From Ruminococcus sp. (lineage in GTDB: Bacteria; Bacillota; Clostridia; Oscillospirales; Ruminococcaceae), in assembly GCF_017464355.1 (NCBI RefSeq), contig NZ_JAFUAG010000030.1, forward strand, positions 39,510 to 103,509: DNA of 64,000 nucleotides, given 5' to 3'. Shown piece after piece: positions 52,736 to 61,816 of this stretch; within the stretch, counting starts at the first letter, position 1; each line of letters begins with the position of its first letter. The notes below the pieces were generated by a model. That model was not told the DNA's origin and searched no databases. It saw nothing but the letters and a program-made list of their open reading frames with translations. Made by a program: the position numbers and the translations under genes.

Positions 52736-53836
52736 TTACATATTCATTGTGACCGCAGTTTCCTCGGCTATCTCTTCCTCGGAACTGCTCGACAAATCGC
52801 CCACAGCGCCGTTCTGTTCCTCATCGAGTGTTTCCCCGACCTCGCTCTCATTTTGCGACACGGCTCGCACACGCTCGTTACGGGCGGCTTCACGCTCGGC
52901 CTTGATCCTTTCTCGCTGGGCGATGGCATCTTCGGGGTGCCGCCATGCGATATTGCCCGAAAGGTGCTTGAGCAGGTGAGAACGGTAGTTCTTGTACTCG
53001 TCCCCGATAAAACCCAAATTCAGCAGAAGAACACGAAAGCTGTACCGCATATTATCTGAATGCGATACAGCCGGAGAGCATTTTGTTCTTGTAACTGCGG
53101 CGTTGCTGATAGCAAGTGCAAGAAGTATCTGTGCCTTGACCTCGCCCGCATGGAGCGAGGCATTGCAGGCTCTGATCTCATAGTGACCATGCTGAAAAAA
53201 GCTGTGCAGATTCAAAGCATGGTAACGGGTAGGGTTGTAATGCTGGTAAGGGCTGCTGTCAGTTTCGGCGTACCACAGCCGTTTGATACCTTCCATAGTT
53301 TTGGGTTTCTTTCTGTTAAGCTGCTCAACAAAAGTCCTGTTGATCTTCTTGCAGTAGTTTGAGCGAGCCGAGGATACCTGAAGAGCATCCCACAGGTAGT
53401 CTTCCTTGCACGACCACAGATTAACAAGGTTCCGTATCTGCTGTGGGGTGTAGTCGGCAGCGTCAATGTGAATGTGAGTACCGCAGTCATACTGCGGACC
53501 GGTAATTGCTCCTTCCTTACGCAAAGCTCGTATGGCCTCCTGCAGCAGGTCAAGGTCATCAAATTCAAGGATAGGTGAGTTCATCTCAACCTTATAGTAG
53601 TCTGAGGCGGGATCTCCGTTTTTCTTTCGGGCATAGATACTGCTGTCACTCACTATTTGCCACCTTCTGCCTTTCTCATCACCGACAGTGTATTTATCAT
53701 AAGTCCCACCCTCATGATCGATAGAACCGCCCAGCACCTTTTGGATAGCCTTTGCTGCCGCACAACGCGTGATGCCTGTCATCTCGATCTCGACACCGAA
53801 CCGCCTCGTCTTGATACCGTCATAGTTTCCTGCCAT
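52736..53836 (-). CDS. Amidoligase family protein
   Basis: 366 aa from the ATG at 53836 (after CGGAGGTG). The start KTRRFGVEIEMTGITR and the later GTHIHIDAADYTPQQIRNL (ends: CGTHIHID) match the COOH-NH2 ligase family PF12224, related to glutamine synthetase and expected to form amide or peptide bonds with ATP. The C-terminus (~310-366) is a charged Glu/Arg tail. The family is frequent on phages and conjugative elements, often next to a gamma-glutamylcyclotransferase, as here. Substrate unknown. Confidence 0.9.
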   Translation of the reverse strand: MAGNYDGIKTRRFGVEIEMTGITRCAAAKAIQKVLGGSIDHEGGTYDKYTVGDEKGRRWQIVSDSSIYARKKNGDPASDYYKVEMNSPILEFDDLDLLQEAIRALRKEGAITGPQYDCGTHIHIDAADYTPQQIRNLVNLWSCKEDYLWDALQVSSARSNYCKKINRTFVEQLNRKKPKTMEGIKRLWYAETDSSPYQHYNPTRYHALNLHSFFQHGHYEIRACNASLHAGEVKAQILLALAISNAAVTRTKCSPAVSHSDNMRYSFRVLLLNLGFIGDEYKNYRSHLLKHLSGNIAWRHPEDAIAQRERIKAEREAARNERVRAVSQNESEVGETLDEEQNGAVGDLSSSSEEEIAEETAVTMNM

Positions 53837-53881
53837 TGTTTCACCTCCGTCCTTTTTAATATGTATCCAGGTTATTGCAAC

Positions 53882-53935
53882 AAAAAAGCCCGGACTCGGT
53901 GTTCTCACATTTCGTGAAAAGCACCAGATCCGGGC
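53882..53935 (-). terminator. Strong terminator upstream of the amidoligase gene
   Basis: GCCCGGA and TCCGGGC form the outer stem, with CGGTG/CACCG inside. The reverse strand continues with TTTTTTG. It would stop transcripts from the AT-rich genes at 54-59.6 kb. Confidence 0.85.
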
Positions 53936-54013
53936 ATCCGAGCATAAAAGATTGCAAAAATATAAGTTATGTATGGCTTTATCCATTTAGACAGAATTGT
54001 TTTATGATTGTTA

Positions 54014-54556
54014 TCAGTCTGATATAGCATTGTATGCTGATATTATATTATCTTTCAAGCCGCCATTTTTAAATTCATATTGACTGCTTAAGCATGGAGA
54101 AACGCTTTTATCTGGATAAACACGAACAGCGCAAACATGTTCTTTGCATTTTTCGGGGCAATCATTACATATTTTTCGTGTTATAAGCGAGCTGAACCAA
54201 GGATGTTTAATGCTGATTATACATTTCTCACTTTTATATATTACTAACTTGGGAACACCATTCATTTCAATATATGGTGAGTTTTTCATTATATTATTCT
54301 CTATAATTGATAAATACTTATGTTCATCAGAGTTATTACTAATATTAAACATTATATCCATCGAAATATTATTTGTAATACAGAATTCTATCATCATAGG
54401 CAGATCCAAATAATTATCATGGACTACTACCAGATTCAAGTTAACATTATCTGACGGGAAACTATTAATTATTTGCTTTATAATATCAAAGCTGACGTTT
54501 TGATATTTTTGTGTAATTTCATTTTTAAATGATACTATTGAAAGGTTTAGTTTAAT
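54014..54556 (-). pseudogene. C-terminal remnant of a radical SAM/SPASM protein
   Basis: The frame is open from 54556 to the stop at 54014 (180 codons) but has no good start. The sequence (NLSIVSFKNEITQ, SFDIIKQII, LVVVHDNYLDLPMMIEFC) reads as the second half of a radical SAM barrel, followed by a Cys-rich end CNDCPEKCKEHVC, VRVYPDKSVSPCLS like MoaA/SPASM C-termini. The CxxxCxxC cluster half is absent. Very AT-rich. It begins exactly where the 52-aa peptide gene ends, so it may be a deletion fusion. Confidence 0.65.
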
Positions 54557-54705
54557 CTACTTTCGTTAATTATAGCAATTATAAGATTCGTAGCTGAAGT
54601 TACAAAGGCTGCAAAAACCGCAGCTGTTAAAAAAGATGTTTTAACTAAGCTAAGCGAACTACTTAAATTGACTACATCAGTTGTAAAATATAATAAATTG
54701 TTCAT
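54547..54705 (-). CDS. 52-aa hydrophobic peptide
   Basis: ATG (54703-54705) 6 bases after TTAGGAG; stop at 54547. Sequence MNNLLYFTTDVVNL..., then a hydrophobic helix (TAAVFAAFVTSATNLIIAII) and ESRLN. It resembles small membrane or holin-like peptides and could be a peptide precursor for the vanished radical SAM gene or a toxin. It lies downstream of the 238-aa gene in the AT-rich set. Confidence 0.6.
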   Translation of the reverse strand: MNNLLYFTTDVVNLSSSLSLVKTSFLTAAVFAAFVTSATNLIIAIINESRLN

Positions 54706-54850
54706 AAGCACTCCTAACCTGTTTTTTTAATAACGTCATTTTGATTAAGTTATTATATATTCTAAATTACGGATAGTATTTCAAATCTATATGTAATAAG
54801 GTATTATCTTACTACTGGAAGATGTTATTATAGCTAAGTTAAGTATATAT

Positions 54851-55567
54851 TTAAAAGAATAAATCTGCATCTGGATAGTTATTAAGAAAAATCCTTCTTA
54901 AATTAGAAAAATCAAAATGGATTAGTCTTTTGTTAAAGTTGCTTTCGATATATTTAATATAGTCATTTATATTGCTGAAGTTTTCGCTTTCTTTATTCCT
55001 TTTTGAATTAATATAACTAGAAATAGCTGTGTTGATACTCTTAATCTCACTGGCATAAACTTTCCAACCTTTATTAGATTCAAGTTTATCATATATCTCC
55101 TTAAAAGCTTTGTCCATTGGTCTAGGTTCAATACTATGTAATATAATCATAGATCTTGATAATATAATCAATTTTCTAAGATTACGATTATCCTCATTTT
55201 CTTTTTTATTAATTTTATATGAATTTGTAATATCAGCAGTGTTATCGTGCCTGTTTTCATCAGCAAAAAGATTCATTTTGGATTTTACAGGGATACCCCA
55301 GGCCTTCGCCAGTTTTCTTCCTACAGATTCAGAAAAAATAGGATTATATAATATATTATTAGTCTCATCCGTTACCTTAAAAATAATAAATGATGTAGTT
55401 ATCCTTCTGTTCCCACAAGCGTAGCTATGTATCTCTTTTCCTGGAAGTAATTCTTCAAAAGAATCCATTTCAATTGAAAAATAATTACTCATTTCTATAC
55501 GTCTTTTTTCATTATAACAGAATTCTTTTTTAAACCTATCAATTTCGTTTTTGTTTGCATCTCTCAT
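54851..55567 (-). CDS. Unknown protein of the IetAS-like AT-rich operon
   Basis: 238 aa, ATG after AGGAGG. Not recognised. It is basic and Asn/Lys/Ile-rich, soluble, with no signal peptide. Tentative motifs: YACGNRRITTSFIIFKVTD in the first third and a helical C-terminus (NDYIKYIESNFNKRLIHFDFSNLRRIF, ends only). It lies downstream of the YTGPGGG repeat gene with a 290-bp AT-rich gap in which I see no gene. Same base composition as the AAA/protease genes, so probably acquired together. Confidence 0.7.
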   Translation of the reverse strand: MRDANKNEIDRFKKEFCYNEKRRIEMSNYFSIEMDSFEELLPGKEIHSYACGNRRITTSFIIFKVTDETNNILYNPIFSESVGRKLAKAWGIPVKSKMNLFADENRHDNTADITNSYKINKKENEDNRNLRKLIILSRSMIILHSIEPRPMDKAFKEIYDKLESNKGWKVYASEIKSINTAISSYINSKRNKESENFSNINDYIKYIESNFNKRLIHFDFSNLRRIFLNNYPDADLFF

Positions 55568-55857
55568 ATTAATGCATCCTCCTTAAGTATTTACATTTAT
55601 TTACAGATAACAGTTCTAATATATCATCTTTACATTCTTTTAATTAGTATGAGATATATGGTATGTATTTTACCAAGAACATTCTTTAAATCTAATTATT
55701 TTTAACTGTTTTAGTTAATTTAGTATAGGCTCTGTCATAACTATGGTTGATTATTATGCATTATGCTTTTCAAACGTATGTATTAACAGAGCCTAAGTTA
55801 ACAATTTACTCTCTCTATATACTAATTAGATTGGGAATGATTTCTGTTGACAATAAT

Positions 55858-56190
55858 CTAAAATCCATTATTTATTAAAAGCTGAATTATATTTGTCATC
55901 CCAGCATCCCTTAAAGCCCTTAACAAATACTCTCTTGGCGGCCAGTTACTCATATACGGATTATCATCAGGCCCTGTGTATAATCCTCCACTAGGTCCTG
56001 TGTAAAGTCCACCTCCGGGGCCTGTATATAATCCACCGCCAGGTCCTGTGTAAAGCCCACCGCCGGGACCTGTGTATAATCCTCCACCAGGACCTGTATA
56101 TGCACCACCACCAGGTCCAGTATACATTCCTCCACCTGGTCCAGTATATAATCCTCCGCCCGGTCCTGTATATCGATTTCTAACCCACAT
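55858..56190 (-). CDS. YTGPGGG tandem-repeat protein
   Basis: 110 aa. The ATG at 56190 is 8 bases after GGAGG; the ATG at 56195 is too close. After MWVRNR come nine 8-residue units: YTGPGGG followed by L, M or A seven times, then YTGPSGGL and YTGPDDNP (residues ~7-78). A 32-residue C-terminus (YMSNWPPREYLLRALRDAG..., ending LLINNGF) looks helical. The 24-bp DNA repeats vary at third positions, so selection acts on the peptide. It follows the protease gene by 91 bp on the same strand. Function unknown; substrate of the protease or of a modifying enzyme are the main ideas. Confidence 0.85.
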   Translation of the reverse strand: MWVRNRYTGPGGGLYTGPGGGMYTGPGGGAYTGPGGGLYTGPGGGLYTGPGGGLYTGPGGGLYTGPSGGLYTGPDDNPYMSNWPPREYLLRALRDAGMTNIIQLLINNGF

Positions 56191-56281
56191 TTCATTGTCC
56201 TCCTTTAAAAATTCTAGATTTCAAACAATGTATTATAAACCACATAACTCATATATTTAAGAAACAATACATAAGAGCATA

Positions 56282-58525
56282 TTAGTCGAATTCAATCTCC
56301 TCGTTGACTTTCTGATGTATATCGATTCTGTTCTGAATCTCAATAGCATTAACAAGCCACCCATTAAGATTGCAATTCCTTATAAACTCATCTATTCGGT
56401 TGATCCCATCAATGGCCTTAACAGTCACTACTACGCCAAACCTAAGACCTACACCATCTTTAGGATCTAAACGGTTGCTGGTTTTGACCTCCATTCCCCA
56501 ATTCTTATTCTTATATGATGACTTGGTCTTTTTGGCTTTTTTAGCATTCTCGGAGATATACTTGACATTATCCCATTTCCTAAATAGCTTTCTTGCTTCT
56601 CCTTCGTACAAGTAACTGTTTTCACCTAAAGTATCCTGAATTGAATTTTGCTTATCATCATTAATAGCGTAAATAGTTCCATCATCTTTTATTCTGCCAA
56701 ATTTCAGGTTCAGCTCTGTGTTTGTATAGTCGACACCCTGCGATCTGTTACATACGGGGAAATAACACATCGTTGCCTTGGAAATATAAGGATAATGATC
56801 ATCTTTCATTGGTATGGGGAAGTGATAATTGTATGTATTCCACTTTTCACTTATATCAGTAACCAAGAACTTTATTTCATCATCTTGTGATTTAATTATA
56901 TCTTCTATCCTGATCGGAACTATTCCATGCCCATACAGAGCAATCATTTCAGGAGTCGGCTGAGTGTCCCAACCTCGGGCAGAATCAATTATCATCGCTT
57001 TAGCCAGTTCTCTGTTTAATCCGATAACATCGATCAGATAAGAAAGCTTGCGTGCGATCCATGGTGCTGCATATGATGTTCCGGAAACATCGGCATAATT
57101 AAAAGGTTCACAAACACGAATAAATTGCTCTTTGCTTCCTCCGTAATAGCTAACGTCAGGCTTGGCAAAAAAGCTCAACGCCAACCCTTTTCTGGCATAG
57201 TTAGGTGAAAGCTTATCCTTAGTGACTGAGTTAACCACCATACTGTTGATAGAATCAGCAGGAGATCCTATCTTTGTAATACTGTCATTATTCCTGTTTG
57301 TTCCTGCAATAACAAAGATAATATCATATTCGTTCTGGAGCTGATCCAGAACAGCAGCTTCAGCAGAAATATAATTATCGCTTATTTCCTTGTCACTTCC
57401 AAGTGATAAGTTCCAAACCTTAATATCTCTGTTATCTGAAATAATCTGTTTTATAAGTTTAATGATAGTAAAGGATGAGAATCCTGCTTTTAAGGATACG
57501 CCAAAATGACGCACTCTAAATCTTCCGCACCCATCGTCCAACCAAGGATTCAATGTCGGTCCGTCAACTATTATTGAAGTTACTGCTGTCCCGTGTCTTT
57601 TATCATCCGTTGTTTTTTTTAGGTTTTCATCTGTCATATCATGATACTCGACCCAGTCGTGAAAATAAACCGTATCATCAAACAATGTATCGATAACACC
57701 AATAGTAGGTTCTATTCCGGGGGAAGGAATATACATCATCCCCGTATCTGCGTCAATTTTAAAATCATCTGGAGACAAAGATGAAAGGTTCTCTGTTGCC
57801 ATTGCCACCAAATACGGAGCCTTTTCAATTAACGTTCTCAATTGATTCTCGTCGAGAAAAACTGTTAAATTATCAAGGATACGACTGGATAAAACATCAA
57901 TACCAAAACCACTTAATAGTCTTTTAGTATCCACACCTGTATCATACAACGTGATGATACTTTGTGTTATGTTTGAACTCAATACTTCTCTGTCATAATC
58001 AATGAAATCGTCTATATATGATACATCAGCAATCACCTGTTTAAAAGTGGATTTACTAATAGCATATTTATCGAATCTTATTCTATTTATCAATGCACTA
58101 TCGTTAAAACGAGTCTGATCTATAGAATTAAGTGAGCTGTCGTTCATTATTTGATTAGCTATGCTAAGAAGGCTAATGGTATTATCAAGGTCAACCATAT
58201 CAATATAATATGTTATAATATGTTTATCTTTCTTATCATTAAACTTAGCACCCACAATAGCATAGTTTGAATCTGCCCCTTTTAACAACGCTGCTATACG
58301 GTTTGACTTAGCTACTATTTTATTATAGTGAACGCTAATTAGAATACCACTGAATGGCCTTTTTTCATTTTGCCAGAACAGTTTAATGCTTTTCAGCTTT
58401 TCAACAATGCTATTGATCTTATCGATCGTTACTGTAACCTTGCCGTTCATTGAAGCACCACCATTGCCACTAGGTTTTGATGCTTGAACAAATCTTTTTC
58501 CTTTCAGTTCCAGCACATCATTCAT
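56282..58525 (-). CDS. ietS: Subtilisin-like S8 protease, IetS-like partner of the AAA ATPase
   Basis: 747 aa. An N-terminal ~260-residue region of unknown fold precedes the S8 domain with Asp279 (IGVIDTLFDD), His311 (KRHGTAVTS), the oxyanion Asn region (IAGTNRN) and Ser484 (VSGTSYAAPW). A ~200-residue C-terminal domain follows. No signal peptide. The ATPase gene ends 4 bp upstream. The pair AAA ATPase plus subtilase matches IetA/IetS, described as an Agrobacterium plasmid stability toxin-antitoxin and later listed among anti-phage systems (Gao et al. 2020). AT-rich, unlike the chromosome. Confidence 0.88.
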   Translation of the reverse strand: MNDVLELKGKRFVQASKPSGNGGASMNGKVTVTIDKINSIVEKLKSIKLFWQNEKRPFSGILISVHYNKIVAKSNRIAALLKGADSNYAIVGAKFNDKKDKHIITYYIDMVDLDNTISLLSIANQIMNDSSLNSIDQTRFNDSALINRIRFDKYAISKSTFKQVIADVSYIDDFIDYDREVLSSNITQSIITLYDTGVDTKRLLSGFGIDVLSSRILDNLTVFLDENQLRTLIEKAPYLVAMATENLSSLSPDDFKIDADTGMMYIPSPGIEPTIGVIDTLFDDTVYFHDWVEYHDMTDENLKKTTDDKRHGTAVTSIIVDGPTLNPWLDDGCGRFRVRHFGVSLKAGFSSFTIIKLIKQIISDNRDIKVWNLSLGSDKEISDNYISAEAAVLDQLQNEYDIIFVIAGTNRNNDSITKIGSPADSINSMVVNSVTKDKLSPNYARKGLALSFFAKPDVSYYGGSKEQFIRVCEPFNYADVSGTSYAAPWIARKLSYLIDVIGLNRELAKAMIIDSARGWDTQPTPEMIALYGHGIVPIRIEDIIKSQDDEIKFLVTDISEKWNTYNYHFPIPMKDDHYPYISKATMCYFPVCNRSQGVDYTNTELNLKFGRIKDDGTIYAINDDKQNSIQDTLGENSYLYEGEARKLFRKWDNVKYISENAKKAKKTKSSYKNKNWGMEVKTSNRLDPKDGVGLRFGVVVTVKAIDGINRIDEFIRNCNLNGWLVNAIEIQNRIDIHQKVNEEIEFD

Positions 58526-58529
58526 TGAT

Positions 58530-59585
58530 TTAGTCCTCCTTGTTTATCTTCCTAGCCACAGAACTCTTTGACTCACCCTTCAGTTTTTCGATTTCTCTTA
58601 CGGTGAAGCCTTGGTCAGATAGCTGGTTTATAGTTATATCATCAAGATTATTGATCAACCTACTATATAGTCTTCTTAGATAGTCATATTCGTATTCAGT
58701 ATCACTAAATGCAAGTGAAGTTTTTATCAAGTTTTTTAATTCTCCGGGATAAGGCAATTCATCAGCGGTATTGAGGATTTTCTTAAACAAGCGTACATCT
58801 TTAGATACACCCTTAAAGTTTTTGATAAAGGAGTTTAAATAGGATTCGGCAATTTCTATCAAATCTTCCTTTGTGTATCTATTAAAATTGATAGTCGCAT
58901 CAAAGCGTCTTATAAGAGCTTTATCGAAGTTCTTGAAAAGATTTGTAGTAGCTATTATTACTATCTCCTTGTTTAAATCTGATAATCTGTCTAATTCTCT
59001 CAGTATTGTAGATGTAACTCTTCCCATTTCCCGAACATCGTTTGAGCTTATTCGATCAAGCGCAATTACGTCAATTTCATCAAATAGTATTATCACATTT
59101 CCGGGATAAGGCAAAGAGTTGATCTCGTTAAATACCTTTGATATATTTTTATTTGTTTGGCCAAGCTTACTATCAATCAAATTATCAAAATTCACGCTGA
59201 ATAATGATTTATCTGACAATCTGGCAATTTGCTTAACTGCTTCAGTTTTTCCTGTACCCGGCATTCCTTCAAACATAAATTTGTTAATTCCGATATTATG
59301 CCTGATTGCATTAATTACTCCTTTAATATCTTCTGAAATAGCTGTCGGCAGATTCAGCGGAGCAAGATTCCGAGTATCCACTTGTTTTAAATAGTCACTT
59401 TCAAAATCAGATCCTTGAGGAACGTACTGATTCGCTTGTGCAATCATACTCATAATGTATTCAGCCAGTTGGTCATCACCAATGCTATCAAAATATCTTG
59501 CTATGCCTATTGCTTCATTACGGAATGCATTTTCATTTCTCTCCACATGATACCTAATAAGGTTTAATATATTCTGCTTTTTCAC
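58530..59585 (-). CDS. ietA: AAA ATPase, IetA-like
   Basis: 351 aa from the GTG at 59585, 9 bases after GGAGGAG; 17 more upstream codons are open. Walker A GMPGTGKTEA (Lys113), Walker B ILFDEID (Asp169, Glu170), sensor-1 ATTN and arginine finger RRFD define a classical AAA module, with ~80 residues ahead of it. In IetAS the ATPase restrains or targets the protease. A consensus promoter with 15-bp direct repeats drives it. First gene of the AT-rich reverse-strand operon. Confidence 0.9.
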   Translation of the reverse strand: MKKQNILNLIRYHVERNENAFRNEAIGIARYFDSIGDDQLAEYIMSMIAQANQYVPQGSDFESDYLKQVDTRNLAPLNLPTAISEDIKGVINAIRHNIGINKFMFEGMPGTGKTEAVKQIARLSDKSLFSVNFDNLIDSKLGQTNKNISKVFNEINSLPYPGNVIILFDEIDVIALDRISSNDVREMGRVTSTILRELDRLSDLNKEIVIIATTNLFKNFDKALIRRFDATINFNRYTKEDLIEIAESYLNSFIKNFKGVSKDVRLFKKILNTADELPYPGELKNLIKTSLAFSDTEYEYDYLRRLYSRLINNLDDITINQLSDQGFTVREIEKLKGESKSSVARKINKED

Positions 59586-59607
59586 TATGCAACACTCCTC
59601 CATTTGT

Positions 59608-59636
59608 ATTATATCATACACTGGGACAAATGTCAA
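59608..59636 (-). promoter_or_regulatory. Consensus promoter of the IetAS-like operon
   Basis: On the reverse strand TTGACA (59631-59636), 17 bases, TATAAT (59608-59613): a perfect match. Confidence 0.92.
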
Positions 59637-59650
59637 TACTCTGGGACAAT
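59616..59650. promoter_or_regulatory. 15-bp direct repeats over the operon promoter
   Basis: ATACACTGGGACAAA (59616-59630) and ATACTCTGGGACAAT (59636-59650), offset 20 bp (two helical turns). The first fills the spacer between -35 and -10; the second is just upstream of the -35. Likely repressor sites. Confidence 0.7.
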
Positions 59651-59813
59651 ATTTCTGAAATATACAGCTACTCGATTTACCTGCGCTACAATGCAGCGAC
59701 CTTCGTACTCACTTAAAACAAGATGCCTTGTCAGCATTTTAACTCTGAAATGCCCTCGGTACACTTTGAATATCTCGCAATCTTATATCGTTAATTGACC
59801 TATTTAACAAGAG

Positions 59814-59849
59814 AAAAGGTATCTCGTTTTTTTACCAAGATACCTTTTT
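59814..59849. terminator. Terminator-like hairpin between ietA and the recombinase remnant
   Basis: AAAAGGTATCT and AGATACCTTTT with T-runs on both strands. The remaining bases of 59651-60017 hold no gene I can support. Confidence 0.7.
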
Positions 59850-60017
59850 GTTTAATCATTTTTACTATTAATTGGACTTTTTATATAGTTTCGGGGTGTT
59901 TTTTGCTTAAAAATCCGATTTGTCATCTATGGTTTTGCAGTATAAAAATTTCTGTAAAATGGCTCTTAAAAAACCGTATTTTCGGGACTTGGAGGGGTTG
60001 TCATCTATTTTGTGTGA

Positions 60018-61418
60018 GCAAGGGACCTCAGCCGTTTCGGAAGAAACTATATCGAGGTCGGCAGATATGTGGATTACATTTTTCCGAGTTATAATATCCG
60101 CTTCATCGCTCTCAACGATAATGTGGATACTGCCAGCAAGGATACCTCAGCACTTGACATGATGCCGATCGTCAACCTATTCAACGAATGGCACGCCGCT
60201 TCTACGAGTAAGAAGATCAAGGCTGTCATTGAAGCCAATGCAAAGGCAGGCAAGTATCGCACGACCTGCGCTCCGTTCGGGTATACGAAAGGCGATGATC
60301 CGAATCATCTGCCTGTGATCGATCACGATGCCGCACCTATCGTCCGCAATATATTTGAAATGCGGGCAAGTGGAATATCTCCGCATCATATTGCTGACAA
60401 GCTCAATGAGGACGGCGTACCGATCCCCTCGGACTATTACTATGCAAAGCTCGGCAAACCAAATCCTCGCAGAACAAGACATATGTGGAGTCCCGAAACG
60501 GTAAGGCAGATACTCCACAACTACACCTACCTCGGACATCTTGTTCAGCTCCGCACCAGAACGGTCAGCTATAAGAATCATAAGGTCATCAAAAATGATG
60601 AGGAAGATATGATCGTTGTGAAGAATACGCATGAAGCTATTGTTTCACAGGAGCTTTGGGAAAGGGTGCGTGAAATGGAGCAGTCTGTATCGCAGGGCAA
60701 GCGAAACTCGGACGGCTATGTTGCTAACCTCAGCGGACTTATTTATTGTCAGGATTGCGGAAATAAAGTAAGGCTGTGTTGGAACAACACCCGTCATCAG
60801 CGTGGCGGTTCTCGTGAATTCTATCGTCACAACTTCAACTGCACATCATATCTGAAATACGGAAAACGCTATTGTCCGAGTCACTATATCAAGATGAAAG
60901 ACATGGAACGTATCGTTCTTGAAGATATTCGCAGTCTTGCACAGCTTGTGGTAGAGGACGAGGAAAAGGCTAAAGCAGAGTTCCTCGCTCGCAAAGCAAA
61001 ACACCACGAGGAGCAGTATTCCGTTGACACCAATAAGCTCACAGAGGGCAGATACCGCTTGCAGGAGCTTGACACGCTGATCCAGAACATCTATGAGGAC
61101 AAAGTTCTTGGCAAGGTATCAGAGGACGTTGCGATGAAGCTGATAGCGAAGTACGAGACCGAACAGAAAGAACTGTCGGCAGAAGTTGCAGACCTCGAAG
61201 AAAAGTTCTCAACGATCAGGCAGGACGAAGAAGATGTAGCTCTATTCATGGAGCGTCTGAGAAAGTACACCGATGTGCAGGAGCTTATCCGTGAGATGTG
61301 TCTGGAGCTTATCGAGTATATCACCCTTGATGCCTATGTTGAGGAGCAGCCCCGTGAGATCTACATCTACTACAAACTGCTCGACGAACCTCTGATAGAC
61401 AAGAGAAGCCTGTTTTAA
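60018..61418 (+). pseudogene. Large serine recombinase lacking its catalytic N-terminus
   Basis: The frame is open from 60018, where DLSRFGRNYIEVGRYVDYIFP begins (residues ~85 onward of the family), so the nucleophile Ser region is deleted; the displayed part lacks a start codon until 60069. The rest is complete: FGYTK...(recombinase domain), the zinc ribbon (IYCQDCGNKVRL ... CTSYLKYGKRYC), a long coiled coil and the DUF4368-like C-terminus. It belongs to the integrases of clostridial conjugative elements. With no start and no catalytic Ser it should be inactive. Confidence 0.85.
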
Positions 61419-61732: not shown

Positions 61733-61816
61733 TGGTGCGGCAAACGGGACTTGAACCCGTACGTCTAGGACACACGCCCCTCAAACGTGCCTGTCTGCCA
61801 GTTCCAGCACTGCCGC
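61733..61816 (-). tRNA. tRNA-Leu(GAG)
   Basis: 84 nt on the reverse strand including an encoded CCA. The acceptor GCGGCAG pairs with TTGCCGC; the anticodon loop TTGAGGG gives GAG; the long variable arm and GTTCAAGTC T-loop fit a class II leucine tRNA. Its 3' end faces the integrase remnants. Confidence 0.95.

What the first reader, a model, noticed from the sequence alone, without database searches (positions are those of the whole stretch)
54014..59650. AT-rich IetAS-like operon extended by a YTGPGGG repeat protein and two unknown genes
An AAA ATPase and a subtilisin-like protease with intact catalytic residues are followed on the same strand by a tandem-repeat protein, an unknown 238-aa protein, a 52-aa membrane peptide and a radical SAM remnant. 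All share low GC, a consensus promoter with operator-like repeats, and one strong terminator at 53.9 kb. The two-gene IetAS pair is known as plasmid toxin-antitoxin and anti-phage system. A repeat protein as third member is, to my knowledge, not described; it could be the protease substrate, a sensor decoy or the effector released by cleavage.
Basis: partly seen in the sequence, partly recalled or inferred. Interest (0 to 1): 0.85.

Follow-up and report, generated by a model that had tools for sequence, protein, structure and literature searches.

The report
IetAS pair beside hidden YTGPGGG-repeat gene
A known type of bacterial protease defence pair sits next to an apparently independent gene from a widespread, very strongly conserved repeat-protein family that the family databases searched here do not list and that is carried by phages, plasmids and genomic islands.

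Summary
The genes are real: IetA-like AAA ATPase, IetS-like subtilase, YTGPGGG repeat protein, two orphans and a radical-SAM-like fragment, AT-rich, with a 12/12 promoter and a strong terminator. The idea that the repeat protein is a third IetAS member fails its own test. No repeat lies beside any of 19 close IetS relatives (17 with at least 1 kb downstream) or 28 distant hits. A same-genus IetAS locus is similar from operator to ietS stop, then continues with other genes. None of 131 other repeat loci encodes IetA or IetS; none of 49 repeat-bearing genomes searched has IetS. Two results are stronger than the original idea. (1) This IetAS subfamily has a conserved direct-repeat operator in 18 of 18 other promoters and an HTH-like IetA C-terminus: probable autorepression. 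(2) YTGPGGG proteins have no model in Pfam (a weak DUF3432 match in 3 of 74), NCBIfam or PHROGs, occur in 15 named phyla and are under strong purifying selection (dN/dS 0.02-0.05). They sit near integrases, on plasmids and in E. coli (18 of 5426 genomes; five opened, all P2-like prophages, gene misread or missed). Function unknown; best guess a stand-alone, self-associating mobile-element cargo protein.

The parts
59621..59649 (-). Direct-repeat operator: TTGTCCCAG at 59649-59641 and 59629-59621, 20 bp apart, around the -35 box
   Evidence: paired [T/C]GTCCC upstream of ietA in 18 of 18 other close loci that hold the region; 3 hits in 1.15 Mb of control loci
59608..59636 (-). ietA promoter TTGACA-17-TATAAT with TG
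   Evidence: 12 of 12 matches, the only such site in 53700-60300
58530..59585 (-). ietA: AAA ATPase, 351 aa, GTG start, HTH-like C-terminus
56282..58525 (-). ietS: subtilisin-like (S8) protease, 747 aa
55858..56190 (-). YTGPGGG octapeptide-repeat protein, 110 aa: W-x-R-N start, 8 full units (7 YTGPGGG, 1 YTGPSGG), PYMSNWPP and helical-looking tail
55726..55795 (.). 70-bp stretch bounded by 10-bp inverted repeats TAGGCTCTGT/ACAGAGCCTA between the repeat gene and the 238-aa gene; single copy in the held genome
54851..55567 (-). Orphan 238-aa protein; no homologue in 390 other class genomes
   Evidence: (weak matches only)
54547..54705 (-). 52-aa hydrophobic peptide from its ATG (54 aa from an upstream GTG)
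   Evidence: no convincing family match
54014..54439 (-). 141-aa ORF with Cys-rich C-terminus, a radical SAM/SPASM-like fragment
   Evidence: no significant family match (GeoRSP_SPASM E 0.051 only); label rests on my reading of the Cys motif
53882..53935 (-). Intrinsic terminator closing the AT-rich unit

Best explanation
The block is an AT-rich cargo cassette, probably of a mobile island, made of separate modules and not one five-part system. Module 1 is a complete two-gene IetAS toxin-antitoxin/defence pair. Its AAA ATPase IetA probably restrains the subtilase IetS and, through a C-terminal helix-turn-helix-like segment, probably represses its own promoter at two TGTCCC direct repeats 20-21 bp apart (shown: operator and HTH-like segment conserved; inferred: binding and repression). 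Module 2 is a YTGPGGG repeat gene of a widespread, uncatalogued family that has no fixed partner and is found again and again on prophages, plasmids and islands, often just downstream of other genes. Its strong conservation across phyla without a shared neighbour suggests that the protein acts alone through a physical property of the repeat array (a rigid or self-associating Gly/Tyr scaffold) and benefits the mobile element or its host, perhaps by blocking other invaders (inferred, low certainty). The 238-aa, 52-aa and radical-SAM-like ORFs are orphans or remnants.
For: Same-genus IetAS locus L173: DNA similarity (74%) covers window 59649-56280, operator to ietS stop; then a 96-aa ORF and a TIR protein, no repeat and no 238-aa gene in the 5.8 kb downstream. 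Repeat absent from all 47 other loci found with IetS. IetA/IetS absent from 131 of 131 other repeat loci. IetS absent from 49 of 49 repeat-bearing genomes searched. Operator in 18 of 18 promoters; HTH-like C-terminus with invariant residues in 11 of 11 IetA aligned. 7 pairs dN/dS 0.024-0.051, three more synonymous-saturated.
Against: In the window the repeat gene starts 91 bp after ietS on the same strand with no terminator listed between them, so it may be co-transcribed with ietAS. In 86 of 115 repeat loci the upstream gene is on the same strand. One lineage, mostly Bacillota MAGs, keeps an ImmA/IrrE-Fic gene (or an edge fragment of it) directly before the repeat gene in 14 loci, 11 of them with an HTH gene before it, so partnership with TA/defence proteases is possible in some lineages. 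No function, structure or expression of the repeat protein was tested. IetA binding to the operator is not shown.
Confidence: 0.75

Rival explanations
1. The repeat protein is a third, functional IetAS component (substrate, decoy or effector released by IetS), recently recruited in this lineage only.
For: Same strand, 91-bp gap, shared AT-richness, one 12-of-12 promoter and one terminator around the block. In another lineage the repeat gene stably follows an ImmA-like protease-Fic gene; ImmA-like proteases are the antitoxins of RosmerTA (passages of PMC10440598).
Against: 0 of 47 other loci found with IetS, including a same-genus copy, carry it; 0 of 49 repeat-bearing genomes searched have IetS.
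Confidence: 0.1
2. The repeat protein is a precursor of a modified peptide (RiPP) once processed by the nearby radical SAM enzyme, with IetS as maturation protease.
For: A repeated core-like sequence and a Cys-rich radical-SAM-like ORF in the same block.
Against: The radical-SAM-like ORF has no Pfam match and is at most a fragment; no radical SAM family is among the 25 families listed for each set of nearest neighbours (92 and 98 families matched, so the unlisted rest was not seen); no obvious leader.
Confidence: 0.05
3. The repeat protein is a lysogeny-expressed or plasmid-expressed exclusion or anti-phage factor that acts alone.
For: Position beside integrase and CI repressor in P2-like prophages, in four of the five opened also with an AAA ATPase/DUF4276 pair (Pfam check on L174); integrase enrichment; plasmid carriage, once near a reverse transcriptase, a DUF4062 gene and an MspI gene.
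Against: Position is indirect evidence only; no phage test; other cargo genes share these sites. Two tblastn searches of the phage collection found no match, though the repeats are masked there.
Confidence: 0.3

Closest known systems
IetAS (AAA ATPase IetA + subtilase IetS) toxin-antitoxin/defence pair
   Same: Gene content, order, AAA and S8 motifs; PADLOC IetA 5.1e-36 and IetS 3.5e-61
   Different: Far below NCBIfam equivalog cut-offs (96.7 of 510 and 148.3 of 900 bits); carries a conserved TGTCCC operator and an HTH-like IetA C-terminus
AAA-ATPase/subtilisin-like TA module of mycoplasmas (PMC8562856, passages read)
   Same: Same two enzyme classes; reported there as a functional TA module in an E. 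coli neutralisation assay
   Different: No operator or helix-turn-helix of this module in the passages found
RosmerTA (ImmA-like RmrA antitoxin; passages of PMC10440598)
   Same: In one lineage an ImmA/IrrE-Fic gene is followed by a YTGPGGG gene; 13 upstream neighbours match PADLOC RmrA models
   Different: Not related to the window's IetAS by any match seen here; the YTGPGGG gene is not named as a RosmerTA toxin in the passages read
GPGGX/resilin-like Gly-Pro-Tyr elastomeric repeats (recalled, no call)
   Same: Short Gly/Pro/Tyr tandem units
   Different: No homology tested beyond the PDB profile search; bacterial, about 110-150 aa, unit-specific positions conserved across phyla

Membership tests
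IetAS | AAA ATPase with Walker A/B directly followed by an S8 protease | tested here: met
   IetA-like ORF found in 18 of 19 close IetS loci, the other starts inside ietS
IetAS | Profile match to IetA and IetS defence models (PADLOC) | tested here: met
   (E-values; no cut-off given)
IetAS | NCBIfam equivalog cut-offs NF042959 / NF042956 | tested here: not met
   96.7 vs 510 and 148.3 vs 900 bits; IetAS-like, not the named equivalogs
IetAS | IetS toxic, IetA neutralises; phage protection | not testable with these tools
   Needs experiment
IetAS | YTGPGGG protein as a third component | tested here: not met
Catalogued protein family (Pfam, NCBIfam, PHROGs, PDB) for the YTGPGGG protein | Significant match of the family | tested here: not met
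   74 members: PHROGs 0, NCBIfam 0, Pfam DUF3432 in 3 members only, best 2.4e-5; PDB profile best E 0.05. PADLOC was not scanned with the repeat protein
RiPP precursor with radical SAM | Intact radical SAM gene in the cluster | tested here: not met
   141-aa ORF without a match

The most novel reading that the evidence does not exclude
YTGPGGG proteins are a new class of stand-alone mobile-element effectors, spread over many bacterial phyla and hidden by low-complexity filters and wrong-frame annotation, that work by self-assembly of a rigid Gly/Tyr octapeptide array (cytosolic and exported forms) to protect the element-bearing cell against competing invaders.
Probability: 0.2. Interest if true: 0.85.

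Novelty: categorically new. Interest (0 to 1): 0.6.

Why it matters
The IetAS part is a new member of a known kind; its gain is a conserved operator that makes autoregulation by IetA directly testable. The novelty label refers to the YTGPGGG family. A low-complexity protein with dN/dS of about 0.02-0.05, found in 15 named phyla, in prophages and on a 2.4-kb plasmid, without a model in NCBIfam or PHROGs and with only a stray Pfam match, and called in the wrong frame or missed by RefSeq in the five E. coli records opened, is a real gap. It also warns that low-complexity masking and wrong-frame calls can hide strongly selected genes. If it proves to be an exclusion or defence factor it would be a new, very simple kind; if structural, a natural Gly/Tyr repeat material.

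Tried and rejected
Third-member hypothesis: tested from both sides and rejected. Shared mobile unit with the 238-aa gene: no homologue in 390 other class genomes and no tblastn match in the other 131 loci. Recent slippage as origin of the repeats: rejected by synonymous codon differences. Multi-copy MITE between the repeat and 238-aa genes: single copy in the held genome. Fic link: of the 13 Fic hits among 115 upstream genes, 12 appear by phmmer to be one ImmA/IrrE-Fic clade, so I do not count them as independent. Searches of the phage collection with two repeat proteins and of plasmids with the second gave no match; BLAST masks the repeats, so this says little. A plasmid search with an STGPYGG-type protein was swamped by low-complexity matches and not used. 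Class-level scan with the strict pattern: only the own genome (7 hits) and one genome with two scattered single hits among 391. Tree of 64 repeat proteins: weak support (4 of 59 inner branches starred); I use only the phylum names, which come from record titles.

Limits of the counts. At least three of the 14 viral contigs appear to be copies of genome loci (L122/L024, L127/L025, L128/L022). Neighbours were taken for 126 of 131 loci; five gave no usable repeat ORF. Integrase enrichment compares neighbours at E 1e-3 with genome counts at 1e-10, one genome's candidates were scored only in part (G434, 56 of 101), and I assumed one gene per kb; at triple the baseline P is still 1e-5. dN/dS: 14 pairs tried, 1 identical, 3 not in register and dropped, 10 used, not all independent. 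The operator pattern was relaxed to [T/C]GTCCC after seeing L134. Promoters of the 28 distant IetS hits were not examined by alignment.

Paper searches: YTGPGGG 0 papers, GPGGGLY 0, TGPGGG 1, by its title on Chlamydomonas light tolerance, seen in listing only; IetAS and its regulation, listings only; two searches gave nothing on point in their listings; RmrA, listing and passages of two papers. The library holds open-licence PMC papers only. UniProt, InterPro and AlphaFold DB were not searched.
Full report
What is there. On the minus strand, 59.65 to 53.88 kb, lies an AT-rich block (GC 27-39% against about 50% for most of the window) with, in order, an AAA ATPase, a subtilase, a YTGPGGG repeat protein, a 238-aa orphan, a 52-aa hydrophobic peptide and a 141-aa radical-SAM-like fragment. 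It opens with a 12-of-12 promoter and closes with a strong terminator. To its right lies a serine recombinase ORF that matches only the end of the resolvase domain (profile 91-145 of 145, weak, E 0.014), then a tRNA-Leu, so the block looks like cargo of an integrated element; that is inference.

The IetAS pair. Both proteins match PADLOC IetA and IetS (5.1e-36, 3.5e-61) but score far below the NCBIfam equivalogs. IetS matches occur in 15 of 391 class genomes and 36 of 398 phylum genomes, own genome included in both and some weak. In 18 of 19 close relatives an IetA-like ORF is present; the other locus starts inside ietS. Upstream of ietA, the ten relatives and the window share two [T/C]GTCCC direct repeats 20-21 bp apart, over or just before the -35/-10 region. 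In the enlarged set the pattern is found in 18 of 18 close loci that hold the promoter region, against 3 hits in 1.15 Mb of other fetched loci. The IetA C-terminus (TVREIEKLKGESKSSVARKI in the window) is conserved in 11 of 11 aligned and reads like a helix-turn-helix; that label is my reading, not a profile hit. I infer autorepression. I saw no mention of it in the listings and passages looked at.

The repeat gene is not part of IetAS. The same-genus genome G459 has IetAS 86/75% identical with the same operator; DNA similarity to the window (74%) runs from 59649 to 56280 and stops at the ietS end, where a 96-aa ORF and a TIR-domain protein follow. None of 47 other loci found with the IetS query shows the repeat (one has a single GPGG, no array): 19 close relatives, 17 of them with at least 1 kb downstream, and 28 distant hits, 13 with a recognisable IetA-like ORF. 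None of the 131 other repeat loci encodes IetA or IetS by tblastn at 1e-3. None of 49 repeat-bearing genomes searched has IetS.

What the repeat gene is. By record title the genome stretches fall in 15 named phyla: 45 Pseudomonadota, 35 Bacillota, 11 Bacteroidota, 23 in twelve other phyla, 3 unassigned. Of 115 closed ORFs (own and viral copies included), 77 were scored as W-x-R-N/D type; the other 38 include a subgroup ending PYMAIHPPWPLF, for which the script chose a Met after W-x-R-N, and an exported-looking, Cys-bounded type ending WNRPNPNC. Units are position-specific: in 62 proteins the last residue of unit 3 is Ala in 56, while neighbouring units mostly have Leu/Met. Ten comparable gene pairs show pN 0.009-0.089 and pS 0.23-0.79; seven give dN/dS 0.024-0.051, three are synonymous-saturated; the other two frames give ratios of 1.7 to 12.5 where defined, as expected if only the YTGPGGG frame is constrained. 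SD-like cores precede 59 of 76 starts, against 19% of random positions. So this is a strongly selected protein and not junk repeat DNA. Scans of 74 members find nothing in NCBIfam or PHROGs and only DUF3432 in 3 members in Pfam; a PDB profile search gives E 0.05 at best.

Where it travels. Nearest neighbours are diverse (92 and 98 Pfam families). Phage integrases are 9 of 222 nearest neighbours, against about 0.4 expected from 409 integrases in 202.6 Mb of 49 such genomes (approximate). In E. coli the gene is in 18 of 5426 genomes; in the five records opened it lies directly after the integrase of a P2-like prophage beside rcdA. RefSeq calls a hypothetical protein in the wrong frame there in three of three translated (WP_024205920.1; L174, L175, L177) and annotates nothing in two (L176, L208); of the 15 records listed, ten show a hypothetical protein and five nothing. 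It also sits on a 2365-bp Weissella plasmid whose only other annotated gene is rep, and on Acinetobacter, Enterococcus and Aerococcus plasmids and a 2-Mb Vibrio replicon. One lineage, mostly Bacillota MAGs, keeps it behind an ImmA/IrrE-Fic gene or fragment (14 loci), 11 of them with an HTH gene before.

How it may work. No partner is shared, host range spans phyla, and both cytosolic and exported-looking forms keep the same unit. That favours a physical property of the array, such as a rigid or self-associating scaffold, over a specific partner. The benefit is unknown; position in lysogeny and defence neighbourhoods makes exclusion or defence the leading guess, at about 0.3.

Noticed in passing
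L174 12035-12349, L175 12035-12349, L177 8035-8349: RefSeq WP_024205920.1 in E. coli P2-like prophages is a wrong-frame reading of the YTGPGGG gene; in L176 and L208 no gene is annotated there.
   Followed up: yes
59621-59649 and 18 homologous loci (L133-L142, L173, L178-L183, L205): Conserved TGTCCC direct-repeat operator upstream of ietA, with a conserved HTH-like IetA C-terminus in the 11 IetA aligned.
   Followed up: yes
60069-61418: Serine recombinase ORF matching only the end of the resolvase domain (weak match) at the right border of the AT-rich block, near tRNA-Leu 61733-61816.
   Followed up: partly
55726-55795: 70-bp single-copy stretch with perfect 10-bp terminal inverted repeats (TAGGCTCTGT).
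   Followed up: partly
L040, L089, L110 and further MAG loci, mostly Bacillota (14 in all): ImmA/IrrE-Fic gene or fragment directly before the YTGPGGG gene, in 11 loci with an HTH gene before it; resembles RosmerTA neighbourhoods.
   Followed up: partly
L158 (Acinetobacter plasmid pAJ_068-3): STGPYGG-repeat variant near HTH, reverse transcriptase, DUF4062 and MspI genes.
   Followed up: no
52736-53986: Amidoligase-family protein downstream of the terminator; its listed ORF start lies before the terminator, so the true start is probably further in.
   Followed up: no
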